Positions 1-25,563 of a stretch of DNA of 25,563 nt are shown here, piece after piece. The position numbers and the translations under genes were made by a program. Within the stretch, counting starts at the first letter, position 1. Every line of letters begins with the position of its first letter. Origin of the DNA: a virus; the IMG/VR virus record IMGVR_UViG_3300021962_000585, positions 1 to 25,563 of that record, one strand, 5' to 3'. The notes beneath the pieces were generated by a model. The model saw only the letters and a program-made list of their open reading frames with translations. It had not been told where the DNA came from and ran no database searches.

Positions 1-925
1 TCATTTTTGAAAACATTTCAATTACATCTACATAAGATTTAACAGTCGTTTGAGTATCGTTTAAATCTATTTTAAATGAAAATAAGTCGTTAAATAAAAC
101 GAACCCCAATTCTTCGATTATTTTTATCTGTTCCTCAGAAGAAATTAAAAGTAAAAAAGGTATTTTATGAGCAAAATTTCTTAAAGTTTTTTCAGTAAGA
201 TGTGAATTAAATCCATTATTATCAAATCCAAAATCTGAAAATGTCTCTATTGTAAATCCAAAAAAAGAATTTTTGTAAACTGATTGAAAATTAAAATCAG
301 CATCTCTATTAGTGTAAGTGAATACACTCGAGTGATCGTGACTCTGCAGAATATCTAAATTATTTTTTATATTTGGAAAACTTTCAATATGTCTATTACC
401 ATAATGCTCTTCCCCGTTGCAACTCACATAGGATTGATTGAAATTTAAATTTCTATTTAGTAATTCGTTAAGAACCAATGCTCTTGGTTTTCGTATAGCG
501 TTATTAGTAAAATAAAATTTTAAAAATCTTTCCGAATAGTCTTTAAATCCGGTATTTAATTGTGAGTGTTCGGAATGATCAGTAATTGATAATCCATTAT
601 GTAAACAATTAAACCTATCTAAGAAATGATTTGTAGAATGAAAAAATATATTTCTACTTAAAATTCCATTTTTTAAACAATTTTGATAAAAAGCCTTTGC
701 TCCACCAAATGAGATGGGTTCGGTAAAATTATATAAAATTATTTTTTTATTAACTAAATTTTTATTAACCGTAATACGTTGAAAAAAAGGCAATTGATTT
801 GTTATGGATACGAATAAAAAATCCGCATCAATATCGTTATCAACTTTTTCAAAAAATTTTTGATTATGGAGATGGGATACTGATATGAATTCAACTTTCA
901 AATCATAAAAATATATCCTTACCAT
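1..925 (-). CDS. Glycosyltransferase-like phage protein, C-terminus cut by window edge
   Basis: The reading frame is open from an ATG at 925 to the window edge, 308 codons without a stop, so the C-terminus is missing. The start overlaps the stop of the SGNH gene upstream by 7 nt, which suggests translational coupling. I see no signal peptide or membrane segment. Around residues 141-160 there is a K-x-R stretch before 'LVLNELL', and at 244-275 a TEKT motif is followed by a hydrophobic strand and 'ELGF'. The same arrangement (SEKTF, hydrophobic strand, KKLGF) occurs near the end of the protein at 17224-18168. This EKT...GF layout is familiar from glycosyltransferase-like proteins in phage and surface-glycan clusters. 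No donor or acceptor can be named. The gene is certain; the family is an inference. Confidence 0.75.
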   Translation of the reverse strand, partial: MVRIYFYDLKVEFISVSHLHNQKFFEKVDNDIDADFLFVSITNQLPFFQRITVNKNLVNKKIILYNFTEPISFGGAKAFYQNCLKNGILSRNIFFHSTNHFLDRFNCLHNGLSITDHSEHSQLNTGFKDYSERFLKFYFTNNAIRKPRALVLNELLNRNLNFNQSYVSCNGEEHYGNRHIESFPNIKNNLDILQSHDHSSVFTYTNRDADFNFQSVYKNSFFGFTIETFSDFGFDNNGFNSHLTEKTLRNFAHKIPFLLLISSEEQIKIIEELGFVLFNDLFSFKIDLNDTQTTVKSYVDVIEMFSKM

Positions 926-1698
926 TTAATTTTCTTTATAAATGAATACAATTCATTGGAAATTAATCTATAACCTTCTCTATTAGGATGTTGAGTGCTT
1001 CTATTATCCCAATTTTCCTGATATTCCCAATACGTTTCATCGGTATGTTGTATTAACCATTCTCTAAATGTAGTTTGCATACACCCCCAATAATTTTTAG
1101 TTTCAACTAAATGAGTTTTATCATAATCTTTACTCACTCCTAAAAACATATCTTCTATCCCATCACATAAAACATAATTTATTTTATAGTGTGCAAAAAA
1201 TTGTTGAAGAAAAATTATATAGTTTTGGTTCACTATTGAATAATATAAATCAGAATATAGGTTGGTTAGCCAAAATTTCTTATAATCTTCCATAAAAAAA
1301 TCATAGTAACGATTTTCGGTTTGAGTTGATGTAAAGAATCTTTCAGGAGTTTGCATCAAATGCTTTGTACTCCAACTTAACCATTCTCCTTTAGGCCCAT
1401 GTGGCATAAAAGGAAGATAATCTCTTAAAGATGAACTCCACATAACAACCACCAAATCATTTTTTGTAGTTATTCCGTTCTTAACATCATCTATAATTTG
1501 ATTAAATATTTTATTATTTGGATTACCACTTATACCATTATTTTCATATGTAAAGTTCAAATCATCTGCCAAAAACTTAACCCAACTATTCTCTTTTTGG
1601 TAAGCCATCTTTTCGTGTTTGGAGAGGTCATCTTCGACTTCTCGATTACAACCCTCTCCAATAGTCCAACTATCACCGTATGCAACTAATCTTTTCAT
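919..1698 (-). CDS. SGNH/GDSL-hydrolase-like protein (paralogue 1)
   Basis: A 259-residue protein that begins with the block I motif of SGNH hydrolases: GDSW at residues 8-11 carries the presumed nucleophile Ser10. An Asn-rich segment at about 54-65 (NNGISGNPNN) fits the middle block with its Gly and Asn. Near the C-terminus His237 (in TQHPNREGY) sits where the catalytic His is expected. The usual D-x-x-H spacing is not exact, with Asp231 the nearest acid, so the triad is only partly clear. Such enzymes remove acetyl or other acyl groups from sugars and lipids. The start overlaps the carbamoyltransferase stop by 4 nt, and the glycosyltransferase-like gene follows with a 7-nt overlap. Four more members of this family lie in the window. 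Confidence 0.75.
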   Translation of the reverse strand: MKRLVAYGDSWTIGEGCNREVEDDLSKHEKMAYQKENSWVKFLADDLNFTYENNGISGNPNNKIFNQIIDDVKNGITTKNDLVVVMWSSSLRDYLPFMPHGPKGEWLSWSTKHLMQTPERFFTSTQTENRYYDFFMEDYKKFWLTNLYSDLYYSIVNQNYIIFLQQFFAHYKINYVLCDGIEDMFLGVSKDYDKTHLVETKNYWGCMQTTFREWLIQHTDETYWEYQENWDNRSTQHPNREGYRLISNELYSFIKKIKW

Positions 1699-3386
1699 TT
1701 CTTTTTTATAAGATAATTTTCCAATACTAATAAATCTAATCCTATTTGTAAAAATGTGTTTATAGCAGTTTGTGGGTTCAATATCATTGTCTGATCCTTA
1801 ACATTAAAAGATGTGTTTAAAACAATCGGAAATCCCGTTTTCTCCTCCAATTTATCTAATAGTGAATAAACTCTTTCAGTTTCGGGTTTCTTTTTTAAAG
1901 TTTGTATCCTAGCACTACCATCAATATGAGTAATAGCAGGTAGTTTATCCTTAAATTCTTTTTTAACACTCACAATTTGATTCATATATGGAACTTCTCT
2001 ATCCCATTCGAAATATGTAGAAGTGGAGGAATCTTTCACAATTGGTGCAAAAGGTCTAAAACCTTCTCTCTTTTTTACAATTTTATTTATTTTAGATTTC
2101 ATTTCAGGATTTCTCGGGTCAGCAAAAATAGAGCGATGCCCCAATGCTCTAGCTCCCAACTCCAATCTACCCTCAAACCAAGCAACCACTTTTCCATTTG
2201 AAATTTCAGTTGATACAATATCGATGATTTCATTATCAGATAATTTTTTGTAAATTAATTCTTTATTATAATTTCGTAATATTTGTAAAATATATTCATT
2301 TGAAAATTTAGGCCCTAAAAATGGATTAGTGTTATCATATCTTTCTTTTATAGTTCCCCTATAAAATGAAATCAAACATGCTCCAATTGAAGAACCGGAA
2401 TCAGATGGTGCAGATGGTATCCATACATTTTTAAATCCTGTCTTTTTTGAAATTTTACCATTAGCAGTTCCGTTGTATGCACATCCACCACCTAACACCA
2501 AATTATCACATTTAGTTCTACGATGTAAATCTTTTAATAATCTAAAAAAATACATTTCATAAATAAATTGAACGGCCGCCGCTAAATCTTTATGAGAGTG
2601 TGTCAATTCTTCGTTAGGTAATCTAGGTAATAAATCTAAATGTTTTGATAATTCTGATGTAAACATAACATCATCATTTTTATGATAATCAAACATTTTC
2701 ATATTCAATTTAAACCCGCCTTTTTTTGATGGATAAATTATTTCTCTAAATTTATGAACAAAAGTTTTAGGATTCCCATAAGGAGCTAATCCCATTACTT
2801 TATATTCCCCTTCATTTGGTTTAAACCCTAAAAATGCGGTAAATGTAGAATAAAACATTCCCAATGAATTTGGAAATTGTGTAGATTCTAATTCTTCCCA
2901 ATCATTTAATTTATTTCCCTTTGCTAAAACAGTTGTATCCCATTCACCTACCCCATCAACTGTCAATATAGCAGCCTCTTCAAATGGAGATGTTAAAAAT
3001 GAATACCCAATATGAGAATCATGATGAGATGTAAATTTAATTGTTGCATTTGAAAATAAAAATTTAATTTGTTTCTTCAAATCATAATATTGTCTAATAC
3101 CCTTTACCGCAAATTTGAAAGCATCCCTTATCTGAAAATTATCCAAACACGCTGATACAACTCTATGTGTTTTTAACAAAGGCTTTTCATAAAAACAAAC
3201 TTCTTCTATATCCTCAAATGAAAGTTTAGATTCATCCATTATCCATTTAATAGATTTATGTGGGAAAGAACTATCATGCTTTACTCCACTAAATCTCTCT
3301 TCTTCTACTGCTAACTTTACTTTACCATCAACAACTAAACACGCTGAACTATCGTGATAAAAGCAACTTATTCCTATACTAATCAT
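1695..3386 (-). CDS. O-carbamoyltransferase, NodU/CmcH/TobZ family
   Basis: A 563-residue protein covering both domains of the NodU/TobZ family, which transfers carbamoyl from carbamoyl phosphate, through carbamoyl-AMP, to a hydroxyl group. The N-terminal Kae1-like domain has HDSSA at 11-15, EEERFS at 28-33, the metal-binding HHDSH at 121-125 and VDGVGEWD at 143-150. GGGCAYNG at 299-306 fits the nucleotide site. The C-terminal domain has LGARALGHRSI at 410-420, REGFRPFAP at 440-448 and LNTSFN at 523-528. All key residues appear intact. Family members carbamoylate nodulation factors, antibiotics and, in at least one characterised phage-type enzyme, 5-hydroxymethylcytosine in DNA. No hydroxymethylase gene is in view, so a glycan or a modified base are both possible acceptors. 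It overlaps the following SGNH gene by 4 nt. Confidence 0.93.
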   Translation of the reverse strand: MISIGISCFYHDSSACLVVDGKVKLAVEEERFSGVKHDSSFPHKSIKWIMDESKLSFEDIEEVCFYEKPLLKTHRVVSACLDNFQIRDAFKFAVKGIRQYYDLKKQIKFLFSNATIKFTSHHDSHIGYSFLTSPFEEAAILTVDGVGEWDTTVLAKGNKLNDWEELESTQFPNSLGMFYSTFTAFLGFKPNEGEYKVMGLAPYGNPKTFVHKFREIIYPSKKGGFKLNMKMFDYHKNDDVMFTSELSKHLDLLPRLPNEELTHSHKDLAAAVQFIYEMYFFRLLKDLHRRTKCDNLVLGGGCAYNGTANGKISKKTGFKNVWIPSAPSDSGSSIGACLISFYRGTIKERYDNTNPFLGPKFSNEYILQILRNYNKELIYKKLSDNEIIDIVSTEISNGKVVAWFEGRLELGARALGHRSIFADPRNPEMKSKINKIVKKREGFRPFAPIVKDSSTSTYFEWDREVPYMNQIVSVKKEFKDKLPAITHIDGSARIQTLKKKPETERVYSLLDKLEEKTGFPIVLNTSFNVKDQTMILNPQTAINTFLQIGLDLLVLENYLIKKK

Positions 3387-15217: not shown

Positions 15218-15606
15218 TGGTGGAGATGGTGGGATTCGAACCCACGTCTTATAAAGTAATCATAATACCAACGTTTCACAAGTTTATTCCTTTTTCTAAA
15301 GGAAAAAATATGTAGTTTATACTTCCCCGCTAAAACTACAAAATTCAGATGGTTCAACTTTTAGAGTCTGAACCAAAAACCAGCTCTTTGTAAACACTTC
15401 TGTTCCTAGGTTGTATGTGCACCGACCCGAGTTGGACTAGGCAGCTACTGCGTAATCCGCACCAACGAATGCCATAGCATCTTCGAAGGTGAATGAAGAT
15501 AATTCTTCTGCGTTTATTGTTTGATTCCTTTATTAAAGTGGTTTGAGAACCTTCCCACTACTTGTGATATTATAACTCACATCATAATCAAATCCGAGTC
15601 ATCCCC
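15218..15606 (-). ncRNA. ssrA: tmRNA (ssrA), 389 nt, CCA encoded
   Basis: Both ends of a one-piece tmRNA are visible on the minus strand. The 5' end GGGGATG pairs perfectly, with one G-U, with CATCTCC before A-CCA at the 3' end. GACTCGGATTTGAT follows the acceptor strand as in other tmRNAs, and GTGGGTTCGAATCCCAC is a standard T arm. Between them is the tag frame (15437-15511). tmRNA with SmpB rescues stalled ribosomes and adds a degradation tag; SmpB would come from the host. The gene is 3 nt after the DNA methylase stop and 6 nt before the SGNH ATG, so it is probably cut out of a longer transcript, as no own promoter is evident. Confidence 0.95.
15437..15511 (-). other. tmRNA tag reading frame, 24 residues ending YAVAA
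   Basis: The likely resume codon is GCA at 15509-15511, preceded by AATAAAC. The frame begins AEELSSFTFE, ends GADYAVAA and stops at TAG (15437-15439). Most bacterial tags have 8-20 residues; Bacteroidota tags are typically short and end in YALAA. The C-terminal hydrophobic-AA end still fits ClpXP-type recognition. The exact resume codon is inferred. Confidence 0.8.
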
Positions 15607-15609
15607 ATA

Positions 15610-17169
15610 TTACTTTTTATAAAATATAAATATTGGTTCGTATTTGTAAAACTCACCATTAATCTTCATACTATTTTTTACATTCGATAAATCAACACCT
15701 GTCATTGGTGACATTGTCATCTTTATCTTACCCTGATATTCCATACCCAATTCAGTTAGGATATCAATTGAATCCTGCTCCAATGGGTAAAAACTTTTAC
15801 CAATTTTAATATCTGCAATATTCCAAAGGATGTATCTATCATTTCGCAGCCATTCATAAGCAGTTATTAATGTAGGTCGTAGGAATCCATCTCTCCAACT
15901 TTCGTAGTTTCCGAATTTCTTATAAGATTGAGTTTCATCATCTGAATATCTTTCTCTATCAAAATAGGGAGGTGAGGTAAATACAAAGTCCAATTGACCT
16001 TTCCATTTTTGGAATCCTTCTTGCTCACTAATAATTTCACTTCCTGTTCTGTAAATCTCATAGGTATTTTTATGCCCCCAAAATGGATTTGCTGCACCTG
16101 GTATACGCGAGTTAAAAAATTCCGCTAAATACTCATAACGAGTCTTATCTATTTCATCAATATAATTCTCCGTATTCGGGTCATTTCCAATGTAATGAAT
16201 ATTTCTATCATCAACACTCAATGCACCCAATATTCTACCACCCCATCCCGAAGAAGGGTCATAGATATTAATTTGTTTTTGGTCTTTAATATGGTTTGTA
16301 AATCTTTGATACAAATACTTCGCAGTAAGTGGAGGAAAGTTTACAGCTGCCTGAGTTCCCATTCCGATTCTAAACGCCGCAGTTGCTTCGGGGAAAATAG
16401 TTTGACCTAAAGGATACCACTTTAATTGAATAGGTTGTTTTTCCAAATCAACCAATGAGTCAATATCTTCACCCCAATTAGCAGTTTTCAAAGATGATAT
16501 GTGTTTATATTGAATAACACCATCTTTGTATAATTGCTTCACTTCTTCTGCGGTAATAGGTAAAGATTCAATTCTACTATCAGTTTGCGCTAAACAAAAA
16601 TCATGTCCTTCCCATACATCGCCTTTCATCCATTTTTCAATCCATTCTTTTGCAGTTGGTAAGTGAGAATTATGATGTTCTTTGTTACCTTTAGCAAGAG
16701 TTTTAGAGAAACGATACATTGCATCCTGTCGTGTCAATCTTCTCATTTGTTTTGCAAATTCAGGAAGATATTCATCCTTACAAAAGATATCGTAAATAGA
16801 TGGTTTTGGTTTATCATAGGTTGAACCACCAATACCAGTCTTATACATTGCAGGAAAAAATTGGTTTACAGGAGTAGCAAATTTATTGAAGTTAAAAATT
16901 ACTTCATCCCCGTCATCATCCTTTTCTTCAAATTTATCTACTTTATATGTTTGTAGTTTAGAGAATTGTTCTATGATTTCAGCTTCGGAAGAACCAATAC
17001 GAGGAGGCGCTCCTGTTTCGTTCCATACTTCAACAACGGTCTTTCTGAACATCGCTACCCAATCCTCAAATTCTTTTAGTGTCATTTTAAGAACATCTTC
17101 ATATTTCAAATTGATATGGGGTTCATTAAAATAATCACACTTTTCGTAAAAATACTTCTTTTCTGACAT
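15610..17169 (-). CDS. DNA methyltransferase, N-4/N-6 class
   Basis: A 519-residue protein. The C-terminal half holds a class I methyltransferase domain: motif I as D304-P-S-S-G-W-G-G-R for SAM binding, an acidic strand end at 'YIGNDP' (326-331), and motif IV as T398-S-P-P-Y-F, the catalytic signature of DNA amino-methylases (N6-adenine or N4-cytosine). The order motif I before motif IV fits the beta-type reversed or the gamma-like classes only loosely. The N-terminal 280 residues carry no clear motif and may recognise the target. No endonuclease gene lies beside it, so it may protect phage DNA on its own. It has its own promoter at 17188-17219 and leads directly into the tmRNA. Confidence 0.88.
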   Translation of the reverse strand: MSEKKYFYEKCDYFNEPHINLKYEDVLKMTLKEFEDWVAMFRKTVVEVWNETGAPPRIGSSEAEIIEQFSKLQTYKVDKFEEKDDDGDEVIFNFNKFATPVNQFFPAMYKTGIGGSTYDKPKPSIYDIFCKDEYLPEFAKQMRRLTRQDAMYRFSKTLAKGNKEHHNSHLPTAKEWIEKWMKGDVWEGHDFCLAQTDSRIESLPITAEEVKQLYKDGVIQYKHISSLKTANWGEDIDSLVDLEKQPIQLKWYPLGQTIFPEATAAFRIGMGTQAAVNFPPLTAKYLYQRFTNHIKDQKQINIYDPSSGWGGRILGALSVDDRNIHYIGNDPNTENYIDEIDKTRYEYLAEFFNSRIPGAANPFWGHKNTYEIYRTGSEIISEQEGFQKWKGQLDFVFTSPPYFDRERYSDDETQSYKKFGNYESWRDGFLRPTLITAYEWLRNDRYILWNIADIKIGKSFYPLEQDSIDILTELGMEYQGKIKMTMSPMTGVDLSNVKNSMKINGEFYKYEPIFIFYKK

Positions 17170-17223: not shown

Positions 17224-18168
17224 TTAATAATTCAATATGAAATTTTTTAACAGATTATGATTATGGATTAACCCTTCTAAATGGTAATTGTAATAATCAT
17301 GAAAGTCAGAATCCGTCATTTCCAATAATTCAAACAATTTTTTAAAATATTCCTCTTCGTTTTTGTAGTAAAAAGAATCCAAACAAAATCCTAATTTTTT
17401 TAAAGATATTAGATTATCAAATGAATATAATAGAGCAGGGATACACCCCATTAAAAGTGGTTGGAAAGTTTTTTCACTAAAACAAAAACACATATCCATA
17501 GTTTCACTCCCAATATGAATTTTACAATTTTCCAAATATTCAAATGTTTTAACTGATATGTTCTTATCACATAAGTTTATACCATCATCATATAATGGCT
17601 CTTTTATTTCGTTAAAATTATTTAAAAATGATTGATTAAGATAAGGTATATCAATATCGGAGTTTATATTAAATTCAAAATTATTTGATTTATATAAATC
17701 ATAGTTGGTTGCGTTGAATTTCACCGCAATTTTTTCATTAAAATCATTTTTTAATAAAAAATTTAAAATTTTTATTCTAAAGTGTTTAACGTTGTTTGAT
17801 AAAAAAAGACCTCTAAATCTATTTTTATTAAAATCCATATTAAAGAACTTTTCGCAATATGGATATATCTTTAGGGTTTTAAATCCGTTAGATATGAAAT
17901 ATTTAGAACCTTCTATATGAAAATTAATTTGATCAGATAATATAATTTTGTCAAAATTATTTTTTATAAATTCATTACATTCATTTCTTATAGGATCATT
18001 TGAATCATTGAATATGGGAAGTATTTCAAAGTCATCCTGTATTAAAAGGATTTTTTTATCCGATATTTCAACTAATTCTTTAAACTCTGAAAATTTATAG
18101 ATTGCAAAATTTAAATTAACTACCCTAAATTCAGTTGTTTCTAAATTTATGTAATGCCTAATAACCAT
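17224..18168 (-). CDS. Glycosyltransferase-like protein
   Basis: A 314-residue cytoplasmic-looking protein, very rich in Asn, Phe and Lys. The N-terminal half has alternating strands and helices ('KKILLIQDDFEILPIF', 'FDKIILSDQINFHIEG') as in a Rossmann-type GT-B half. Near the C-terminus 'CFSEKTFQPLLMGCIPALLYS' is followed by 'SLKKLGF', the nucleotide-sugar region of several exostosin- and fucosyltransferase-like families, in which the EKT Glu contacts the donor. The partial protein at 1-925 has the same layout. It is the last gene of the long operon, its start sharing one base with the amidinotransferase stop. The donor sugar is not known. Confidence 0.65.
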   Translation of the reverse strand: MVIRHYINLETTEFRVVNLNFAIYKFSEFKELVEISDKKILLIQDDFEILPIFNDSNDPIRNECNEFIKNNFDKIILSDQINFHIEGSKYFISNGFKTLKIYPYCEKFFNMDFNKNRFRGLFLSNNVKHFRIKILNFLLKNDFNEKIAVKFNATNYDLYKSNNFEFNINSDIDIPYLNQSFLNNFNEIKEPLYDDGINLCDKNISVKTFEYLENCKIHIGSETMDMCFCFSEKTFQPLLMGCIPALLYSFDNLISLKKLGFCLDSFYYKNEEEYFKKLFELLEMTDSDFHDYYNYHLEGLIHNHNLLKNFILNY

Positions 18169-19193
18169 TATTCTCTAATTGTATCCAATGTTACACAATG
18201 AGGCCCTCCACTAAAAGTTCTGGCGTGTCTCATTTTTACAGGTATAGAATCTACTCCCCATTTTTTAAGCTCTTTTATAAGAGGAATTTGTCTTTCCTCT
18301 ACAATCATAGTTTTTTCATCATAAGAAAGTGTGTTCATTCCTAACCAAGAAGATGCTTCCGCCCAATGTTCTAAGAAAGGAGTATCTATCATCTCAGGAG
18401 AGTATATTTTATCCCATTTTTTGAATATTTCCGGCATATTGGTATCATTTACCCTTTTTGGATTAAGTAAGACCAGTCCCTCTCTAATTAACACGAAAGT
18501 GGTATCTATATGAATGAAAGCATATACATCTTGAATAGGATGGACTTTATACTTTTCTTTCATATTTTCATCTAACCATTTTTGTAGATATTGAGCCCCC
18601 GCTAAATTACCGGTATTAGAAACTAAATAAATTATATCATTATTACATTTTAGAAGATTGGCTGCATCAAATACTGGTTCTTCGTTTCCTAATGTTGGGC
18701 CAGGTAATAATTCCCTATTATAGATTGAATCTAATAATTTTGGTTTAGGGAAATCCACCCAACAACTTTCATCAAAAAGGTGTTTAAATGCTCTTGTCTC
18801 ATTTTGTCTTTGGCGGAGAGCCATTGGAGTAGCAATAACCTTATCTTCTATCACTAACATTGAATCTCTTGGGCAATATCCATAATACCCATCTACTTCC
18901 CAATTATCAGTTGAATACTTCTCACTCCAATCAATAAGTTTAGGTCTAAAAACTTCTACACCTAAATCTTCTAATGTTTTGCTAAAATTATCTAAATCTT
19001 CGATTGTTTCTTCAATCATCCAATTAGGATATCTACCCGATGGGATTCTTAAAAATTGTTCATCGGTGTAGTGCGCATAATCTATCGTATGCAATGATTT
19101 ATCTTTTACAGTAGGTACTTGAGCAAATTCAGGTCTTCCGACAATTATTTGTTTCAGTTTACCCCATTCGTTTTTAATATAAGGTTTTATCAT
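18168..19193 (-). CDS. Amidinotransferase (glycine/inosamine type)
   Basis: A 341-residue enzyme of the guanidino-group family that moves an amidino group from arginine to an amine. The catalytic residues of glycine amidinotransferase are in place: Asp176 in 'PVFDAANL', His228 in 'AFIHIDTTF' and the nucleophile Cys333 in 'GGPHCVTLD'. The substrate-binding P-R-D (108-110) and 'IIVGRPEFA' at 16-24 also fit. Known products are guanidinoacetate, guanidino-inositols of aminoglycosides and guanidino groups on toxins. Placed between a sugar epimerase and a glycosyltransferase-like gene, it might act on an amino sugar; this is an inference. It overlaps the epimerase gene by 4 nt. C-terminal ends 'TIRE', as expected for a full-length enzyme. 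Confidence 0.92.
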   Translation of the reverse strand: MIKPYIKNEWGKLKQIIVGRPEFAQVPTVKDKSLHTIDYAHYTDEQFLRIPSGRYPNWMIEETIEDLDNFSKTLEDLGVEVFRPKLIDWSEKYSTDNWEVDGYYGYCPRDSMLVIEDKVIATPMALRQRQNETRAFKHLFDESCWVDFPKPKLLDSIYNRELLPGPTLGNEEPVFDAANLLKCNNDIIYLVSNTGNLAGAQYLQKWLDENMKEKYKVHPIQDVYAFIHIDTTFVLIREGLVLLNPKRVNDTNMPEIFKKWDKIYSPEMIDTPFLEHWAEASSWLGMNTLSYDEKTMIVEERQIPLIKELKKWGVDSIPVKMRHARTFSGGPHCVTLDTIRE

Positions 19194-19726
19194 CTATCTC
19201 TTTTTTGTAATATTGGATTATTTGTAGGCCATTCCATTTGAAACTCCGGGTCATTCCATTTAACTACACCTTGCTCATCTGCATCCACATAACCATCTTT
19301 ATAAAATAGGTTATAATGAAACATACAATCGGTTAATGCGTAGTGTCCGTTTGCAAATCCTGGTGGAACTAATACCTGATTTCTTAATCTCTCTGAAATT
19401 ATATAAGATTCCCAGTCTCCATAAGTAGGAGAATCTTTTCTCATATCTAATACAACTAAGTAAATATCACCTACCGCTGCTTGGACTAGTTTCCAAGTCT
19501 TATTATCCCAATGCAATCCCCTTAGTACACCTTTATAAGAACGAGAAAATCTTCCGTGTATTTCACACCCATCACTCACATAATTCATTACAGGATGTTC
19601 TTTTGAATGAAATGTTGTAAATATCTCACCCCTATATTCTCTGAATACGGATGGTTGAAATTGTGGAACTTCTATACCAAAAGTTTTTGATGGAGTAACT
19701 TTGAACTCATCCCATTTATTATTCAT
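19190..19726 (-). CDS. dTDP-4-dehydrorhamnose 3,5-epimerase-like protein (RmlC family)
   Basis: A 178-residue protein covering the RmlC cupin. 'GVLRGLHWD' at 66-74 carries the catalytic base His72, 'KLVQAAVGDIYLVVLDMRKDSPTYG' follows the family almost word for word, 'VPPGFANGHYAL' at 120-131 is the conserved loop, and 'VKWNDPEFQMEWP' closes the domain. RmlC converts dTDP-4-keto-6-deoxyglucose to the rhamnose precursor; relatives make other deoxysugars. No rmlA, rmlB or rmlD genes are in view, so the precursor would come from the host or from genes outside the window. It precedes the amidinotransferase gene with a 4-nt overlap. Confidence 0.92.
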   Translation of the reverse strand: MNNKWDEFKVTPSKTFGIEVPQFQPSVFREYRGEIFTTFHSKEHPVMNYVSDGCEIHGRFSRSYKGVLRGLHWDNKTWKLVQAAVGDIYLVVLDMRKDSPTYGDWESYIISERLRNQVLVPPGFANGHYALTDCMFHYNLFYKDGYVDADEQGVVKWNDPEFQMEWPTNNPILQKRDR

Positions 19727-19729
19727 AAC

Positions 19730-20194
19730 TTAAATCTTATTAAAATTATTTTTTATAAATATGTTTTGCGCAGCTTTATGCCATTCTTCACAATAACAGG
19801 TAATTTTTTTACAATCCGATGGTAGAGCTGAAATCACTTTACTTACGAACCATTCAGGAGTATTTTCTGGTCTTTTTATTATTTTAGTAACATATAAATT
19901 ATACAAATAATATTCACCTTTTGCTTTGGGTTCGAGGAATACATATCCTATCGGCTCATTTATATAATAGAGGATAAATAGTATGTGGTTAGAATCTATT
20001 CTATTTATAACATCTTCATATTCAAACATATTATCCCATTTATATTCGGAATTAAAGTAAGATATCAATGTATCAATATCACTGGATTCACTCATTGTCA
20101 GAAGAAATGCATCGTTTAACTCTTGAATTTTTAATCCAAATATATCCGAATCAAATTCATTAAAATCTTTTCTATCTAAATAAAATTTTACCAT
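19730..20194 (-). CDS. GNAT-like N-acetyltransferase
   Basis: A 154-residue protein with the course of a GNAT domain: strand 'HILFILYYINEPIGYVFLEP' (about 70-89, the N-terminal beta hairpin), 'YYLYNLYVT' (motif A strand) and a C-terminal 'HKAAQNIFIKNNFNKI', which corresponds to the usual 'A..FY.k.GF' helix and strand. The acetyl-CoA loop R/Q-x-x-G-x-G/A is not clear: 'KRPENTPEWFV' occupies that place, so activity is uncertain. GNAT enzymes in such operons often acetylate amino sugars. It shares one base with the stop of the radical SAM gene and ends 3 nt before the epimerase start. Confidence 0.6.
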   Translation of the reverse strand: MVKFYLDRKDFNEFDSDIFGLKIQELNDAFLLTMSESSDIDTLISYFNSEYKWDNMFEYEDVINRIDSNHILFILYYINEPIGYVFLEPKAKGEYYLYNLYVTKIIKRPENTPEWFVSKVISALPSDCKKITCYCEEWHKAAQNIFIKNNFNKI

Positions 20195-21264
20195 TATAAA
20201 AGACTACTTTTATGCTCTATAAATTCCTGTAGATTATGCCAACTTTGTTGAGCTGGTAAAAATGAATTAACTTCTTTAACAAATTCTCTATATTCTGGAT
20301 GTGTAATATCCCAAACTTTTTCACTTTCATATTGTTCGTTACTAAAAGTTCCCCAATTATTTATTTTACCATAAAACACATTTGCTTTATTACCAAATAT
20401 AGATACCATTAAATCATAAAAAAGTTTCATTTCTTTATAGTTCTTTTGTTGAACAACGAATGATGTTTTTACACTCTTTAAACTTTTAATAGTGTTTATG
20501 AATTTTAAATTTTCTATTAGTTCATCCCAATTACCACCCAATCTTACTTTATTTTCATAAGTATCCTTTGTAGCAGCATCAATACTTATCTCGCAACTTT
20601 TAATGTATTTGTGAATTTTGGGCATTGAATCCCACATCTTCTTATCCCATTTTGTTGCGTTTGTATGAAAATGTATTTTGTATAAATTAGGCCATTTTTT
20701 TGAATCAAAATTTCTTAAAAAATCTCTAAACCCAACTGATACGAAAGGATCACCACTTCCTGTTATATACAACGTTTTAGTAGTTTTCCCATATTGTTTC
20801 TCTATCTCATCAATAGTTGTTTTAACTCTATTTATACCATTTGAATCTTCTACAAATAAATTAACCCTACAAGATGGACATTTTAAATTACAAGTTCTAT
20901 CAAAAGAAAATTGAATAGTAGATGGTGGTAATAATGTTCCCTTACTAAAAGAATCTATTTTTTCTTTAAATTCATATGGTATATCATTTTTATGATGCAA
21001 TGTGTTTGTATTACCAATTTTTCCAAATTTAATTAGTTGATGTAAATATGGACATTGGCTTTTATCACAATGTTTAAAACTACCATCTAATACTGAATTT
21101 CTTATATCATTTGCTTCATCGGATTCCCATGCATCTTTTGGAGAAGTATGTTGTGGTAAATATTTTTTTAACCAAGATGCACAGCATAAAAATCTATCCC
21201 TCTCATGCATTTCTAAAGCAACGAAAGGAACAACGCACACATAATCTTTTAAATCAATACTCAT
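20194..21264 (-). CDS. Radical SAM protein with N-terminal cysteine-rich extension
   Basis: A 356-residue protein. The iron-sulphur motif C125-x3-C129-x2-C132 ('RTCNLKCPSC') and the following 'YITGSGDPF' (SAM-binding glycine strand) define a radical SAM core at about 115-330. Before it lie Cys10, Cys27, Cys28, Cys66 and Cys71 in 'VCVVPF', 'FLCCASW' and 'HCDKSQCPYL', which looks like the SPASM/Twitch-type auxiliary cluster motif placed N-terminally rather than C-terminally. Such enzymes modify peptides, sugars or cofactors. No precursor-peptide gene is obvious next to it, so a sugar or small-molecule substrate fits the operon better. It overlaps the SGNH gene upstream by 4 nt. Confidence 0.88.
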   Translation of the reverse strand: MSIDLKDYVCVVPFVALEMHERDRFLCCASWLKKYLPQHTSPKDAWESDEANDIRNSVLDGSFKHCDKSQCPYLHQLIKFGKIGNTNTLHHKNDIPYEFKEKIDSFSKGTLLPPSTIQFSFDRTCNLKCPSCRVNLFVEDSNGINRVKTTIDEIEKQYGKTTKTLYITGSGDPFVSVGFRDFLRNFDSKKWPNLYKIHFHTNATKWDKKMWDSMPKIHKYIKSCEISIDAATKDTYENKVRLGGNWDELIENLKFINTIKSLKSVKTSFVVQQKNYKEMKLFYDLMVSIFGNKANVFYGKINNWGTFSNEQYESEKVWDITHPEYREFVKEVNSFLPAQQSWHNLQEFIEHKSSLL

Positions 21265-21986
21265 AATAAACTTTTAATATATTTTTTAGGAGTATATTGA
21301 TACGATGAAACATCTATATTTAGTTTTTTTGAAATATACTTAAATAATTCAAAATTTCCAAATACCCCTAAATGACTATCTATGATATTTTTGTCAGTTT
21401 CCTCAGTTATATTTGTAAATTTCTCATTAAAATTTATTAAATCAACTGATTTAACTTTATCAGATAAATCACTTGTCCATGTAATCATAATTGGATTCCA
21501 ATTTTTATAAATATTTGGTATATTATTAATAAAGTTTATTTCATCTTTATTAACATTATCATCGAACCACCATTTGTTTCTTTCGATAAATTGACTTTCT
21601 ATAAATTTTACAGTTTTATCATCCCACCCAAATAATTTTTTAAGATGAGTTCCATCTGATATGAATGAATATTTTTTCTTATCATCTATCCAATTAAATC
21701 TCTGTGGAGTTGTGAATATTATAATAATACGATCCCCCTCTTCATATTCTGGAAGATTACCTAATTGAAAAATAATCTGTTCGTTAGTAGCGGCTCCTAC
21801 TCCATATGAATATACATCATAATAATGTGAAATATGATCAATCCAATGACCAAAATAATTATGATATTTTACAAAAGATTCAACCCCATCCAACCCCAAA
21901 AAAGGTTTACATTTTATAAGAGAGTTGATTTTTGAAAAATAGTTATTGGCCCAACTATCACCAAATACAAATAATCTTTTTTTCAT
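21261..21986 (-). CDS. SGNH-hydrolase-like protein (paralogue 3)
   Basis: A 241-residue protein starting 'MKKRLFVFGDSW', with Ser11 as the likely nucleophile. 'GVGAATNEQIIFQLGNLPEY' (the Gly/Asn block) is followed by 'EGDRIIIIFTTP', and D203-S-H205 forms the C-terminal pair. It is most like the protein at 23145-23774, which shares the 'FQLGNLPEYE' and 'GDRII' stretches and the first residues, so the two arose from a recent duplication with two other genes now between them. The C-terminal 30 residues are basic ('TPKKYIKSLL'). It overlaps both neighbours by 4 nt. The acyl group it might remove or transfer is unknown. Confidence 0.8.
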   Translation of the reverse strand: MKKRLFVFGDSWANNYFSKINSLIKCKPFLGLDGVESFVKYHNYFGHWIDHISHYYDVYSYGVGAATNEQIIFQLGNLPEYEEGDRIIIIFTTPQRFNWIDDKKKYSFISDGTHLKKLFGWDDKTVKFIESQFIERNKWWFDDNVNKDEINFINNIPNIYKNWNPIMITWTSDLSDKVKSVDLINFNEKFTNITEETDKNIIDSHLGVFGNFELFKYISKKLNIDVSSYQYTPKKYIKSLL

Positions 21987-22627
21987 ATCATTTTTTTATC
22001 CGATGATAGTATATTAAAAAAATATTCTGATAATTGCTTATGACCTTTAAATGAAAAGTGTAAATCTTCAATTTCACCATTAGTTGCCTTCGTAATATTT
22101 TCAAAAATTTTTATCATATCCTTAACTTCCCATATTATACAATTTCTTACTTTTATATTATTTGTAAGAATTTTTTTTAAAAAATCAAATCTATTATTAT
22201 CTCTAACACGATACATAGGATTTGTTAAAAAATAATATTGGAAATTTATCAACGCTTCAAATTCCTCTTTTGAAAATTTTTTACTAATATCGTTTTTCCA
22301 ATCTGAATCTATTTCTACATAAGATAAAATTTCAATCCACTTTGAATCCTTTGGAATATTAAATCTACCATGAACGGTTTTACCAATTAAAATTATATCA
22401 TTTTCTTTTATGTTATCAATGTTTTCTATTACCGATTGAAATATTTGCTCATTAGATGAACCATTTTGTCCATAATTTACTACAGCCATCTCTAATCTTT
22501 CACCTAAATGTATAGGCCATATATCATCTCCATCTTTTTTATATGAATAGTATGGTTTAAAATGACAATCCTCTACACACCCATATCCAAAAGTAAAACT
22601 ATCACCAAATGTATGTATAGTACTCAT
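21983..22627 (-). CDS. SGNH-hydrolase-like protein (paralogue 4)
   Basis: A 214-residue protein with GDSF at 8-11 followed by 'TFGYGC', the strong block I of SGNH esterases. 'NYGQNGSSNEQIFQSV' at 51-66 supplies the Gly and Asn of the oxyanion hole, 'NDIILIGKTVHGRF' follows, and D188-L-H190 is the C-terminal catalytic pair. All the family landmarks are intact. Among the five paralogues it is closest in block order to the one at 919 (both have a cysteine after block I). Its ATG overlaps the SDR-like gene stop by 4 nt and its stop overlaps the next SGNH gene by 4 nt. Confidence 0.8.
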   Translation of the reverse strand: MSTIHTFGDSFTFGYGCVEDCHFKPYYSYKKDGDDIWPIHLGERLEMAVVNYGQNGSSNEQIFQSVIENIDNIKENDIILIGKTVHGRFNIPKDSKWIEILSYVEIDSDWKNDISKKFSKEEFEALINFQYYFLTNPMYRVRDNNRFDFLKKILTNNIKVRNCIIWEVKDMIKIFENITKATNGEIEDLHFSFKGHKQLSEYFFNILSSDKKMI

Positions 22628-23148
22628 ATTAATGTATTATCAATTTTTAATTTTGTTTTAGATATACCTATTTCAAAAATTTCAATATCTTGTGGAAGTT
22701 CGATTAACCATTTTATAATATTCGATATATTCGAGTATTTTAGTTTTTGATTATTCACCGTTTTTGAACTTTCTAATGTATTCGGGTAAACATTTATAAT
22801 ACGAACTTCTTTATCCATACTTCTTAACTGAAATGTTTTTTGTTCTAAATCCATTTTATCGTCAATATACTTTTTGTTTGGCCCACCAAATATTATGGCA
22901 GAAGTTAAAATGTTTATTATAGTTTTTGGTTTATATTTCCACTCATTGTAAACATACTCAAATAAATCAGATTGTAGTTTATCTTTATATTCGTTGTTAA
23001 TGAACACATCGTATTGATTTATTACATTTGGTAAGTGGTGTGCATAAGAATCAATAGAACTCATATAATCTACTTCATATCCATTTGTAGAAAGATATTC
23101 TTTTATGTTCTTTCCCAACCCATAATTTCCTGTTATTAAAATTTTCAT
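22624..23148 (-). CDS. Short SDR-like (Rossmann) protein
   Basis: A 174-residue protein beginning with the dinucleotide-binding fingerprint T6-G-N-Y-G-L-G ('ILITGNYGLGKNI'). Ser83 in 'ILTSAII', Tyr94 and Lys98 ('YIDDK') could form the SDR triad. The chain is shorter than a normal SDR or sugar epimerase (230-330 residues) and lacks the C-terminal substrate lobe, so it may be a minimal enzyme or a binding protein. In this operon an NAD(P)-dependent step on a sugar is plausible but unproven. It lies between two SGNH genes with 4-nt overlaps at each side. Confidence 0.7.
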   Translation of the reverse strand: MKILITGNYGLGKNIKEYLSTNGYEVDYMSSIDSYAHHLPNVINQYDVFINNEYKDKLQSDLFEYVYNEWKYKPKTIINILTSAIIFGGPNKKYIDDKMDLEQKTFQLRSMDKEVRIINVYPNTLESSKTVNNQKLKYSNISNIIKWLIELPQDIEIFEIGISKTKLKIDNTLI

Positions 23149-23774
23149 AATAAATCTTTTCTATAATTTTCAAATTCTACGATTTCATCATTTATGGATA
23201 AAAGATTGTGAAATATTTTGTAAATTTCGTAACATCCTTTTGGCCCAGGATGAAAATCTTTTTCTTCTGCAATACCTTCATCATAATTAGATGAAACTTT
23301 GATAAGTTCCACAAAATCTGATGTTTGAGTATGAAAATGCTCACTCCATGTTACAAAAACTGGTTCATAATTTTTAATCCAATTTTTTAATTTTTTTAAA
23401 AATGATACCTCAACTCCTCTTTCACCATTTACCCATCTTTCTGATTCATTATATTTTATGTTATGCAGTTTATTTGCAAAATCCATATCTTCATAAAATG
23501 AAGGATTCATAAAAGGAGTACTTATGCACTGCTTTTTCCTAATTCCATAGAATCTTCGGGGTAACCTACCTGGTTCGGTAAAATACATTATTATCCTATC
23601 ACCATCTTCATATTCCGGTAAATTTCCCAATTGAAATAATATCGAATAGTTATCTGCTCCATATTTGCCAAATTTGAAAACTTCATAATGTTTTTCTAAA
23701 TACCAAGTCCAGTGAAATTTGGGTATTTCCCAATCCACAAAAGAATCCCCTAAAATAAATAACCTTTTTTTCAT
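23145..23774 (-). CDS. SGNH-hydrolase-like protein (paralogue 5)
   Basis: A 209-residue protein starting 'MKKRLFILGDSF', with Ser11 as the likely nucleophile, 'GKYGADNYSILFQLGNLPEY' and 'DGDRIIMYFTEPGR' in the middle, and D173-F-H175 ('KDFHPGPKG') at the end. The near-identity with the protein at 21261 in the first 12 residues and in the FQLGNLPEYE block shows a recent duplication, after which the loops between diverged strongly. The 13-nt gap from the methyltransferase gene is the widest in this operon. As with the others, the substrate is unknown; deacetylation of a surface glycan is the usual role of such enzymes in sugar clusters. Confidence 0.8.
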   Translation of the reverse strand: MKKRLFILGDSFVDWEIPKFHWTWYLEKHYEVFKFGKYGADNYSILFQLGNLPEYEDGDRIIMYFTEPGRLPRRFYGIRKKQCISTPFMNPSFYEDMDFANKLHNIKYNESERWVNGERGVEVSFLKKLKNWIKNYEPVFVTWSEHFHTQTSDFVELIKVSSNYDEGIAEEKDFHPGPKGCYEIYKIFHNLLSINDEIVEFENYRKDLL

Positions 23775-23787
23775 TATATTATTTCTT

Positions 23788-24345
23788 TTAATTTTTTCTC
23801 CACCACCATACTAATCTTTCTAACTGAGGGAAGTTTGAATTTATATCCAATTTAATAGGAATATGTATTGATAAATTAAATTGTTTTGTTCTTTTGTAAA
23901 AATCAGAATAGAATATTCTATTATTAGTTTTATGTAAGTATTTTTCATTATGACCGATGTAATCAATAAATGGCTGATTCCTCATAATAATATACCCACC
24001 TGGTTTAACCCAACTCACCACCTTACTAAGTTGATATTCTTGTTGGGTTCTTGAGGTGTATTGAAGTGAACCCAAACATAATGCCACATCTACTGATTCT
24101 AATTCAATATCAATATCTTCAATAGATGCCAGTTTATCAACCTCTGGATAGTTTTCTTTATCGAACCCATATAGATTATTAATTAGCCCTTTAAATAAAT
24201 TTTCTCCACACCCCACATCTATTACTTTGGAGGGGTTTAAATTATTTACATCTTTGACTAGATTGTACCCAGAATACTTATAACCTTCCATTACTTCTTT
24301 ACTATATCTACCTATACCTGGAACTATAAATAACATTGGTTTCAT
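23788..24345 (-). CDS. SAM-dependent methyltransferase, class I
   Basis: A 185-residue protein with the class I fold: motif I V41-I-D-V-G-C-G-E, the acidic strand end 'YGFDKEN' at 59-65, motif IV 'VALCLGSLQY' at 87-96 and the post-I loop 'WVKPGGYIIM' at 112-121. It is of the small Methyltransf_11 type that methylates sugars, lipids or small molecules rather than DNA, as it lacks an N/DPPY motif. The ATG shares one base with the stop of the sulfotransferase-like gene, so the pair is translated together. Confidence 0.85.
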   Translation of the reverse strand: MKPMLFIVPGIGRYSKEVMEGYKYSGYNLVKDVNNLNPSKVIDVGCGENLFKGLINNLYGFDKENYPEVDKLASIEDIDIELESVDVALCLGSLQYTSRTQQEYQLSKVVSWVKPGGYIIMRNQPFIDYIGHNEKYLHKTNNRIFYSDFYKRTKQFNLSIHIPIKLDINSNFPQLERLVWWWRKN

Positions 24346-25034
24346 TATATTATTTGTTTTTTGGTACTTTGTTTTAGTCTGTTTGATGGGTGTAGATACT
24401 CATTTAATTTTTCAGAATCAATATTATTTATGCCCCATGAATTAATAATTCCTAAAGATTTATTCCTATCTTCCCCATACAGGTCTTCATACCAGATAAT
24501 ATTTCCTTCTAACTTTTTAATAGTTTCATGCAATATCTCTTTATCATGAATTAGTTTTTCTCGTAATCCACTTTTTTCAAACTCATTTATAACTTCAAGA
24601 GGTATATCGGTTGTGTACCATTTTTTGTACCACGGCCTTACATCTCCATTTGATTCATTATTAACTTTATATGTTAAATTAACTATACTTAAAAAATGCT
24701 CATCTAAATTTTTTCTATCAATCCAAAGTACTTTATCAAAATTTTTTACAAACTCAAATATAAATGATTGCCAATTTTTAAAACCATGATATCGTTTTGG
24801 AGTTTGCCCTACCAATGTTTTAACCAAAGTATTTTTTTCTTTATCAAGAAAAAAATTAAGTTGTTCTTCTTTATTTCTATTCCACCAACCAAATTGAAAT
24901 TTTTTTTCATTAACACCTGTATATGTGGTATCCATACTAAATGGTTCTGGAATAATATGATATTTTTGATTATGGAAAGCATCGGATAACGATATCGTCC
25001 CACATCTACCTATTCCAACTAACAAAATATTCAT
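24345..25034 (-). CDS. Sulfotransferase-like protein
   Basis: A 229-residue protein with the two PAPS-binding motifs of the sulfotransferase family. The 5'-phosphosulfate loop is G7-I-G-R-C-G-T-I-S-L-S, and the 3'-phosphate site is 'VLWIDRKNLDEHFLSI' at 102-117, with Arg107 and Ser116. The hydrophobic first strand 'MNILLVGI' fits the fold. It would transfer sulfate from PAPS to a hydroxyl or amine of a glycan or lipid, using host PAPS. It is somewhat shorter than typical family members but no part is visibly missing. It overlaps the oxygenase gene by 4 nt. Confidence 0.8.
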   Translation of the reverse strand: MNILLVGIGRCGTISLSDAFHNQKYHIIPEPFSMDTTYTGVNEKKFQFGWWNRNKEEQLNFFLDKEKNTLVKTLVGQTPKRYHGFKNWQSFIFEFVKNFDKVLWIDRKNLDEHFLSIVNLTYKVNNESNGDVRPWYKKWYTTDIPLEVINEFEKSGLREKLIHDKEILHETIKKLEGNIIWYEDLYGEDRNKSLGIINSWGINNIDSEKLNEYLHPSNRLKQSTKKQII

Positions 25035-25531
25035 ATCAAAGTTTCTTTTTTATCAAACATTATTACTAATACCTTTCTAACACCACTTTCAATTTTAGAT
25101 ACAGAATGTCTTTCTTTAAAACCTTCGAAATTTATAAACATACCTTTTTTATTAAAAGATATAATGTTATCATCGATTATCAAATCTCCTCCGGTAAATT
25201 TATCTTCTAAGAGTATCAATGTAGTTTGTAATACCGTTTTTTTATCCAAATGTGGATTTGTATAATTTCCTTCATTATAAATTAATTCATAAAAAAAATC
25301 AATTTTAAAATTTTCTTTTCCAAATTTTTTAAGTAAAAATGCGTTCAACTCTTTATCATGTGAACCATAATGTTTCATAGATGAGATAATAAGAGCATTA
25401 TCATCTCTCATAACGGCATATGGATGCTTTTTTTTAAGAGTAGCGTATTCACTTTCACTCATACCCATATTAGCATTCAATGAATTTATTATAAAATTAT
25501 ATTCAGTATTATCTAATATCCCTATTTCCAT
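25031..25531 (-). CDS. 2-oxoglutarate/Fe(II)-dependent oxygenase, small
   Basis: A 166-residue protein that is nearly only the catalytic core: H94-L-D96 in 'NPHLDKKT', the distal His142 in 'KERHSVSKI' and Arg152 in 'GVRKVLVIMF', with 'GGDLIID' between. These are the iron and 2-oxoglutarate ligands of prolyl-4-hydroxylase-type oxygenases. Its substrate may be a sugar, peptide or small molecule of the operon. It is only distantly like the 255-residue enzyme at 12781. The start shares one base with the stop of a frame that enters from the right edge. Confidence 0.85.
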   Translation of the reverse strand: MEIGILDNTEYNFIINSLNANMGMSESEYATLKKKHPYAVMRDDNALIISSMKHYGSHDKELNAFLLKKFGKENFKIDFFYELIYNEGNYTNPHLDKKTVLQTTLILLEDKFTGGDLIIDDNIISFNKKGMFINFEGFKERHSVSKIESGVRKVLVIMFDKKETLI

Positions 25532-25563
25532 TATAAAATTTTATTTTTTGATATTTCATTTTT
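25531..25563 (-). CDS. C-terminal end of an upstream gene (partial)
   Basis: A frame enters at the right edge and ends with TAA at 25531-25533 after ten codons (ending NKIL), sharing one base with the oxygenase ATG as TAATG. The same junction is used at 24345, 20194 and 18168, which is the reason for calling it. The piece is too short to identify. Confidence 0.4.
   Translation of the reverse strand, partial: KNEISKNKIL

What the first reader, a model, noticed from the sequence alone, without database searches (positions are those of the whole stretch)
17224..25563. Twelve or more coupled genes for an unknown tailoring pathway in a phage
Seen: from 25531 to 17224 nearly every gene joins the next by a 1-nt or 4-nt overlap: oxygenase, sulfotransferase, methyltransferase, SGNH, SDR, SGNH, SGNH, radical SAM, GNAT, RmlC, amidinotransferase, glycosyltransferase. 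Known: each family acts on sugars, peptides or small molecules. Inference: they build a sulfated, methylated, possibly guanidinylated sugar or metabolite that decorates virions, DNA or the host surface. I know of no described phage pathway with this combination.
Basis: partly seen in the sequence, partly recalled or inferred. Interest (0 to 1): 0.75.

Follow-up and report, generated by a model that had tools for sequence, protein, structure and literature searches.

The report
Swappable phage surface-decorating gene cluster
A virus of Bacteroidota bacteria carries a long, tightly packed set of genes that chemically decorate a sugar or protein (probably adding sulfate, guanidine and other groups); related viruses swap most of the set while keeping a core, and several carry it beside tail-fibre genes, which suggests that the viruses decorate their own fibres.

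Summary
In detail: twelve minus-strand genes (25531-17224) are coupled, 9 of 11 junctions overlapping by 1 or 4 nt. A near-identical longer record shows a run of 20 genes. The window is a fragment of a T4-like phage whose relatives are nearest Flavobacterium Immutovirus, not a host locus. It is not one fixed pathway. A core (amidinotransferase, 3,5-epimerase and, outside the window, APS kinase, nucleotidyltransferase and an intein-fold protein) is in 7 of 7 records laid out, while genes 5' of the epimerase are replaced at a sharp boundary, even between phages 95.5% identical downstream. The amidinotransferase is nearest StrB1; 'RmlC' is nearest GDP-heptose-type epimerases; the sulfotransferase has the Stf0 fold. 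In relatives the radical SAM cassette adjoins a protein O-heptosyltransferase and Ser/Thr-repeat fibres, and its lead gene often has a late-type promoter motif. Best explanation: a late, modular island decorating the phage's own fibre glycoproteins; host-surface modification is the main rival. Hypervariable 'LPS' islands (cyanophages) and interchangeable radical SAM/amidinotransferase modules (Campylobacter phages) are in print, so this is a new variant of a known kind. The sulfate-activation genes, intein-fold leader and O-heptosyltransferase/fibre link were not found in print.

The parts
25031..25531 (-). OGO1, 2OG-Fe(II) oxygenase-like (variable cassette)
   Evidence: PHROG 2OG oxygenase E 4.9e-6; Pfam below cut-off; family of 88 ORFs in the loci fetched
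24345..25034 (-). ST, Stf0/NodH-like sulfotransferase (variable cassette)
   Evidence: no profile hit; model pLDDT 78.6; Foldseek top Stf0 1tex E 5.1e-4; VIA Z 12.5, rmsd 4.2, 192 aligned; R10, G12, R107, S116 invariant in 21 relatives
23788..24345 (-). MT, small-molecule or protein methyltransferase-like (variable cassette)
   Evidence: Pfam Methyltransf_11 at cut-off
23145..23774 (-). SGNHa, SGNH-family hydrolase/esterase
   Evidence: joins SGNHb family by iterated profile; no Pfam hit
   Evidence: no family hit; conserved family of 10 ORFs in related loci
21983..22627 (-). SGNHb, GDSL/SGNH hydrolase
   Evidence: Pfam Lipase_GDSL over cut-off
21261..21986 (-). SGNHc, SGNH family
   Evidence: iterated profile
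20194..21264 (-). rSAM, twitch-type radical SAM enzyme; marker gene of the cassette
   Evidence: Pfam over cut-off; NF033640 E 7e-24 but under its cut-off; CxxxCxxC and C10, C27, C66, C71 invariant in 12 relatives
19730..20194 (-).
   Evidence: no Pfam or PHROG hit; family of 7 ORFs
19727..19766 (-). boundary of cassette exchange; the late-type motif ATATTTAT lies at 19762-19755
   Evidence: collinearity with L003 starts at 19762, with L006 at 19766, with L008 at 19727; the motif is present before 2 of 8 distinct epimerase copies, so it may be chance
19190..19726 (-). 3,5-epimerase of NDP-4-keto sugars, GDP-heptose type ('RmlC'); stable core
   Evidence: Pfam PF00908; best solved relative 8dco GDP-4-keto-heptose 3,5-epimerase 138 bits vs 90 or less for the dTDP-4-dehydrorhamnose epimerases below rank 8; in 7 of 7 records laid out
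18168..19193 (-). AMT, StrB1-like amidinotransferase; stable core
   Evidence: 1bwd StrB1 E 1.1e-83, SxtG 9e-50, AGAT 2.8e-45; in 7 of 7 records laid out
17224..18168 (-). GTb, putative glycosyltransferase; end of the coupled run
   Evidence: no family or PDB-sequence hit; absent or replaced in relatives other than L002 and L003
17170..17223 (-). gap with a Bacteroidota-like promoter before the DNA methyltransferase, so the run ends here
   Evidence: sequence TTTG...TTTCGTATCTTCG; consensus recalled, not from a call
15610..17169 (-). MTase519, N4/N6 DNA methyltransferase; neighbouring phage gene, not part of the cassette
   Evidence: PHROG DNA methyltransferase E 4.7e-10; found in 37 loci, many with other neighbours
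919..3386 (-). carbamoyltransferase plus SGNHe: a second small tailoring group in the window
   Evidence: PHROG Nol-like carbamoyltransferase E 2e-110; SGNHe by iterated profile

Best explanation
A late-expressed, modular tailoring island of a T4-like Bacteroidota phage. Stable core enzymes make and guanidinylate an activated sugar, probably heptose-like (epimerase, StrB1-like amidinotransferase), and supply active sulfate (APS kinase outside the window). A swappable cassette adds hydroxyl, sulfate, acyl/ester, methyl and radical SAM chemistry. The decorated sugar is placed on Ser/Thr repeats of the phage's own fibre or adhesin proteins, changing what the virion binds or what recognises it. 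Shown: operon, core versus cassette, exchange boundary, enzyme families as listed, genomic link to fibres and to a protein O-heptosyltransferase in relatives. Inferred: substrate, order of steps, virion as target, benefit.
For: Exchange: L003 is 95.5% identical over 11.6 kb from 36 nt 5' of the epimerase start and shares only 256 nt upstream; L006 and L008 break at the same place. Between two close relatives (G003, G004) cassette genes diverge (36-93%) while amidinotransferase, DNA methyltransferase and PhoH stay at 97-98%. Enzymes. Sulfate supply: APS kinase over Pfam cut-off, found in 7 of 7 records laid out. Fibre link in relatives that share the radical SAM cassette: the protein O-heptosyltransferase model TIGR04414 is over its cut-off in 15 of 52 records; a collagen-like Ser/Thr-rich fibre follows it in L055, L058, L071, L073 and L074, and a Thr/Pro-repeat protein lies near it in L050, L053, L062, L063, L065 and L066 (11 of 14 such loci examined); one fibre has collagen and S74 domains. 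In G008 the amidinotransferase lies in the same co-directional run as an S74 fibre, gaps <= 142 nt, and in G003 a glycosyltransferase island directly follows the S74 fibre gene. G009 has a GDP-heptose 4,6-dehydratase (7us5, 358 bits). Timing: TATTTAT precedes 14 of 23 structural and 1 of 41 early genes in G003; ATATTTAT 6 of 14 vs 4 of 47 in G002/G004/G005; it precedes 8 of 18 cassette-leading intein-fold genes vs 17 of 298 others.
Against: In the window's own clade the O-heptosyltransferase was not found in any record examined, the GDP-heptose dehydratase was not found in G001-G005, and in G003 the cassette lies about 45 kb from the S74 fibre. The late motif before the window epimerase is in 2 of 8 distinct copies, and no such motif was seen before the first coupled gene in G001. 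Of 8 records with radical SAM relatives, 4 had no amidinotransferase, though these are fragments. G004 is a close relative of G003, so the promoter test is only partly independent. The published view of similar islands is host LPS modification (PMC7029224, PMC9602691; passages).
Confidence: 0.5

Rival explanations
1. Host-surface modification: the enzymes alter the infected cell's LPS, capsule or surface glycoproteins to exclude competing phages (a serotype-conversion-like role).
For: Published reading of glycosyltransferase islands in pelagimyophages and cyanophages (passages of PMC7029224; PMC9602691); StrB1-like amidinotransferase and GDP-heptose-type epimerase act on free or nucleotide-bound sugars; hypervariability also fits this; no fibre gene lies next to the window cassette.
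Against: Late-type promoter motif before the lead gene in 8 of 18 cases, whereas exclusion would be expected early; a protein O-glycosyltransferase family and Ser/Thr-repeat proteins next to the cassette in relatives. A flippase or polymerase was not specifically searched for.
Confidence: 0.25
2. The intein-fold protein that leads the cassette (HINTn) is itself the main substrate, and the cassette is a line of enzymes modifying it.
For: It is present in 27 of 31 distinct radical SAM/amidinotransferase records with at least 5 kb upstream (recounted by hand; in G001 it lies further up); its fold is intein-like at residues 284-466 (Z 15.4); the short form ends in a six-Cys, Trp/Tyr-rich tail and all 6 short forms have a tryptophan-halogenase gene nearby against 0 of 12 long forms.
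Against: Its first half has no known fold (barely tested, model pLDDT 63.9); absence of the halogenase is only partly tested, as several loci start within 1-4 kb upstream; sugar enzymes of the core do not fit a pure protein target; 4 of 31 records lack it.
Confidence: 0.13
3. Biosynthesis of a free small molecule (aminoglycoside-like or peptide-like metabolite).
For: StrB1-like amidinotransferase, sulfotransferase, radical SAM and, in relatives, a tryptophan halogenase are typical of secondary metabolism.
Against: No carrier-protein, cyclitol or peptide-synthetase gene was noticed in the window (not searched for specifically); wholesale swapping next to structural modules is unusual for a metabolite pathway.
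Confidence: 0.07
4. Hypermodification of phage DNA bases.
For: A DNA methyltransferase gene follows the run; the isolate relative immuto has 7-deazaguanine genes.
Against: The methyltransferase has its own promoter-like sequence and stays when the cassette changes; none of immuto's QueC/D/E, FolE or DpdA genes had a blastp match in G001, G003, G008 or G009.
Confidence: 0.04

Closest known systems
Interchangeable radical SAM/amidinotransferase cluster of Campylobacter phages CP220 and CPt10 (PMC2853527)
   Same: Published passages: the largest region differing between the two phages, little sequence relation but the same enzyme kinds, each with five radical SAM genes and a putative glycine amidinotransferase; CP220 also has sugar-transferase-like genes beside it.
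   Different: Amidinotransferase only 27.9% identical; one radical SAM here; CP220 annotation shows no sulfotransferase, SGNH or 2OG genes in the 25 kb viewed.
Hypervariable LPS/tail-fibre islands of T4-like cyanophages and pelagimyophages (PMC3037559, PMC7029224, PMC9602691)
   Same: T4-like phages; islands near phoH or tail fibres with glycosyltransferases, carbamoyltransferase, PrnA halogenase and, in S-SCSM1, 24 2OG oxygenases (passages).
   Different: Bacteroidota-type phages; amidinotransferase, APS kinase, sulfotransferases and the intein-fold leader; sulfotransferase had 0 occurrences in PMC3037559 and PMC7029224.
Synechococcus phage S-SCSM2R glycosyltransferase/radical SAM/amidinotransferase run
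   Same: Coupled glycosyltransferases, radical SAM, 2OG oxygenases and an amidinotransferase 38.7% identical to this one.
   Different: No SGNH genes annotated there and different neighbours.
StrB1 inosamine-phosphate amidinotransferase (streptomycin)
   Same: Best solved relative, full length; Asp/His/Cys positions recalled as catalytic are kept in the printed alignment.
   Different: Substrate untested; no streptomycin-type neighbours noticed.
TibC/Aah protein O-heptosyltransferase (TIGR04414)
   Same: Domain over the curated cut-off in relatives beside the cassette.
   Different: Not found in the window's clade.

Membership tests
PAPS-dependent sulfotransferase (Stf0/NodH-like) | sulfotransferase fold | tested here: met
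   VIA Z 12.5 to Stf0, next rows sulfotransferases; some kinases at Z 9.0-9.3; Foldseek E 5.1e-4, with only 2 hits at E <= 0.001, the other not a sulfotransferase
PAPS-dependent sulfotransferase (Stf0/NodH-like) | conserved 5' loop Arg/Gly and 3' Arg/Ser | tested here: met
   R10, G12, R107, S116 invariant in 21 relatives; their role is recalled
PAPS-dependent sulfotransferase (Stf0/NodH-like) | significant sequence-profile match | tested here: inconclusive
   no Pfam/PHROG/NCBIfam hit; best PDB profile hit NodH E 0.0056, other rows chance-like
StrB1/AGAT amidinotransferase | full-length similarity with catalytic Asp, His, Cys | tested here: met
   alignment, residues 6-340
RmlC (dTDP-4-dehydrorhamnose 3,5-epimerase) equivalog | TIGR01221 cut-off | tested here: not met
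   109.7 vs 155.75 bits; the wider epimerase family PF00908 is met
GDP-4-keto-heptose 3,5-epimerase | closest to enzymes of that activity | tested here: inconclusive
   the top 8 PDB sequences (128-138 bits) are named GDP-heptose epimerases or 'thymidine diphospho-4-keto-rhamnose 3,5-epimerase'; substrate untested
T4-like phage hypervariable tailoring island | T4-like phage; sequence replaced between conserved flanks near phoH | tested here: met
   terminase of G003 56% to Immutovirus, T4-like portal/capsid homologues; exchange between flanks; PhoH at G001 615-1472, matched by Immutovirus PhoH
CP220/CPt10 radical SAM/amidinotransferase module | several radical SAM genes with an amidinotransferase | tested here: not met
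   one radical SAM gene in the window run
Host O-antigen locus | present in bacterial chromosomes | tested here: not met
   radical SAM profile: 1 truncated copy at a contig end in genome contigs; pattern-seeded, distant copies could be missed
Virion protein glycosylation system | modified virion protein | not testable with these tools
   needs mass spectrometry

The most novel reading that the evidence does not exclude
The island is a phage-encoded protein-maturation line: an intein-fold leader protein (HINTn), expressed late, is the carrier or substrate on which swappable enzymes install halogen, hydroxyl, sulfate, methyl and guanidinylated heptose groups, and its Hint domains then release or attach the modified segment to the fibre. 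It would be a viral analogue of a modified-peptide pathway coupled to fibre glycosylation, exchanged as a cassette in the arms race with Bacteroidota hosts.
Probability: 0.12. Interest if true: 0.88.

Novelty: new variant of a known kind. Interest (0 to 1): 0.6.

Why it matters
Why T4-like phages carry large sets of sugar-modifying genes is open; one of the papers seen could not say whether such genes are functional or stuffer DNA (PMC3037559, passage). The fibre and O-heptosyltransferase neighbours, the stable core and the exchange boundary give a testable answer: virion fibre decoration, with sulfation and guanidinylation predicted. If right, phages build sulfated, guanidinylated protein glycans and vary them by cassette swapping, which would bear on host range and phage recognition and offer new tailoring enzymes.

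Tried and rejected
DNA hypermodification: weighed and put low. Host fragment: rejected; window proteins sig, HD, MPE and coil333 match Immutovirus and the linked records carry T4-like structural genes. A promoter at the exchange boundary as the rule: rejected, 2 of 8 copies. PDB sequence searches with the radical SAM profile at E 0.001, SGNHb and GTb gave nothing usable. The terminase family search hit 2 of 24 records, most being fragments or off model. tblastn in 50,697 phage records gave no match for the radical SAM protein, the sulfotransferase or the first half of HINTn, 15 records for the amidinotransferase and 5 for the APS kinase. Absence in print: full-text searches gave 0 papers, 67 gave 1 unrelated, 69 gave 5, 108 gave 8 and 109 gave 4; listings only, except passages of PMC2853527, PMC3037559, PMC7029224, PMC9602691 and PMC11360552. 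Listings were not read further except those named. The open library misses most subscription journals. Labels SET, GSCFA, DUF2061, Zn96 and HINTn are mine or recalled; NCBIfam gave no hit for the SET-like and GSCFA-like genes.
Full report
What is there. The window is the whole of a 25,563-base IMG/VR virus record. Twelve minus-strand genes from 25531 to 17224 are coupled: six 4-nt overlaps, three 1-nt overlaps, gaps of 13 and 3 nt. A 40.6 kb record, G001, is 99.97% identical over 25,527 nt and extends it; there the coupled run counts 20 genes. The eight genes before the window edge are, by eye and blastp, mostly more 2OG-oxygenase-like genes, a GSCFA-like gene and a second sulfotransferase-family gene. 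Further up lie a SET-like gene, the intein-fold gene HINTn, a glycosyltransferase-like gene, a small membrane protein, a nucleotidyltransferase and an APS kinase, then PhoH.

Which phage. The terminase of the 164 kb relative G003 is 56% identical to Flavobacterium phage immuto, and its portal, capsid and protease match immuto at 48-49%. Window genes sig, HD, MPE and coil333 match immuto (29-43%). A Bacteroidota-like promoter sequence precedes the DNA methyltransferase (consensus recalled). A tmRNA gene lies at 15218-15606 and is kept in 10 of 16 loci scanned.

Core and cassette. With the amidinotransferase as query, 11 viral loci were found; epimerase, amidinotransferase and DNA methyltransferase stay together in most, but what lies 5' of the epimerase differs. 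L003 is 95.5% identical to the window over 11.6 kb, starting 36 nt before the epimerase start, and beyond that shares only 256 nt at 68%, in the radical SAM gene; L006 and L008 break within 40 nt of the same point. L003 still has its own radical SAM (34%), GNAT-like (43%) and SGNH (43%) genes there: the kinds of enzyme persist while the sequences change. In two close relatives, G003 and G004, cassette proteins are 36-93% identical while PhoH, amidinotransferase and methyltransferase are 97-98%. In the seven records I laid out (G001-G005, G008, G009) amidinotransferase, epimerase, APS kinase, nucleotidyltransferase and HINTn are in 7 of 7; radical SAM in 3, halogenase in 5, GDP-heptose dehydratase and O-heptosyltransferase in 2. 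Five of these were picked because they hold the amidinotransferase; among 8 records picked for the radical SAM gene the amidinotransferase is in 4, the other 4 being fragments of 13-84 kb.

What the enzymes do. The amidinotransferase is nearest StrB1 (E 1.1e-83) ahead of SxtG and AGAT, with the residues recalled as catalytic kept: transfer of an amidino group from arginine to an amino sugar or amino-cyclitol is the likely reaction. The epimerase misses the rmlC equivalog cut-off and its best solved relatives (128-138 bits) are GDP-4-keto-heptose epimerases and entries named TDP-4-keto-rhamnose epimerase, ahead of classical RmlC at 90 bits and below. The sulfotransferase had no profile hit, but its model matches Stf0 (Z 12.5, rmsd 4.2, 192 residues), with R10, G12, R107 and S116 invariant in 21 relatives. 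Sequence profile support against the PDB is weak (NodH E 0.0056). The radical SAM protein is of the twitch type. Five SGNH proteins in the window form one family when searched from a, b, c or e; the search from SGNHd gathered no other window member.

Link to fibres. The radical SAM gene brought in 27 loci. Around it the order HINTn - SET-like - 2OG - SGNH - sulfotransferase - radical SAM recurs. HINTn is in 27 of 31 distinct records with at least 5 kb upstream of the anchor gene (recounted by hand by contig; in G001 it lies further up). A protein O-heptosyltransferase domain (TIGR04414) is over its cut-off in 15 of 52 records, none of the window's clade. In 11 of 14 such loci examined a Ser/Thr-rich repeat protein lies beside it: collagen-like in five, Thr/Pro repeats in six, of which L062, L063 and L065 are near copies. 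S74 fibre domains were found in 9 of 29 records. In G008 the amidinotransferase is in one co-directional run with an S74 fibre; in G003 the glycosyltransferase island follows the S74 fibre; in G009 the cassette runs into O-heptosyltransferase and fibre. G009 also has a GDP-heptose 4,6-dehydratase (7us5, E 4e-106). In G003 itself the cassette and the fibre are about 45 kb apart.

Timing. TATTTAT was among the 7-mers enriched upstream of G003 genes. It precedes 14 of 23 structural genes and 1 of 41 early genes with at least 20 nt upstream (Fisher 2e-7), with classes set by me from map position. In G002, G004 and G005 ATATTTAT precedes 6 of 14 against 4 of 47 (p 0.007); G004 is close to G003, so this is a partial replicate. 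HINTn genes have it in 8 of 18 cases against 17 of 298 for other genes. Before the window's epimerase it occurs 36 nt up, but only 2 of 8 distinct epimerase genes have it. No terminator-like site was found between HINTn and the run in G001.

Reading. A late, swappable tailoring island whose product is most likely a guanidinylated, possibly sulfated sugar on Ser/Thr repeats of fibre proteins. The virion as target, the heptose and the order of steps are inferred. Host-surface modification is the main rival and is the published view of similar islands (passages).

Novelty. Hypervariable sugar islands in T4-like phages and an interchangeable radical SAM/amidinotransferase module in Campylobacter phages are in print (passages), and S-SCSM2R has a similar deposited run. 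Not found in the searches named in Tried and rejected: phage APS kinase with sulfotransferases, the intein-fold leader, and the O-heptosyltransferase beside fibres. Hence a new variant of a known kind.

Noticed in passing
L076:6124-8838 (G001), L083:4201-5685 (G003): HINTn: a late-motif-bearing gene leading the cassette. Long forms carry Hint/intein domains; the short form has an intein-like fold unseen by Pfam and a tail of the type HN-P-C-W-C-P-W-x-x-C-G-x-W-C-x4-C-x2-C.
   Followed up: partly
L083:7395-8642 and homologues: Tryptophan-halogenase gene (Pfam E 5e-92) near all 6 short HINTn forms and none of 12 long ones; absence only partly tested.
   Followed up: partly
window 15218-15606 (-): Phage-borne tmRNA with a 24-residue tag ending GADYAVAA; found in 10 of 16 related loci scanned, at the same place downstream of the DNA methyltransferase.
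   Followed up: partly
L076:3895-4905: APS kinase, HxGH nucleotidyltransferase and a small membrane protein (DUF2061-like, recalled) in a row: a possible phage sulfate-activation unit; the kinase and nucleotidyltransferase are in 7 of 7 records laid out, the membrane protein in 6.
   Followed up: partly
L050, L053, L062, L063, L065, L066: Mucin-like Thr/Pro repeat proteins (TPTNTSTQTQ) beside an O-heptosyltransferase gene.
   Followed up: no
L113:6992-7595: Contig of an uncultured Sediminibacterium genome with host-type genes, ending in a truncated radical SAM gene and the start of the phage-type glycosyltransferase gene in the phage order: a remnant or a misassembly.
   Followed up: no
G003:45225-48100: Galactosyltransferase family 7 enzyme fused to a laminin-G-like domain in a phage (a second similar copy by eye).
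   Followed up: no
window 13588-14553 (+): The one large plus-strand gene, g321, with no family hit, kept in the same reversed orientation in relatives.
   Followed up: no
G003 upstream regions: Two promoter-like motif types: TATTTATA before structural genes and TTTCGTATCTTTG before several early genes.
   Followed up: partly
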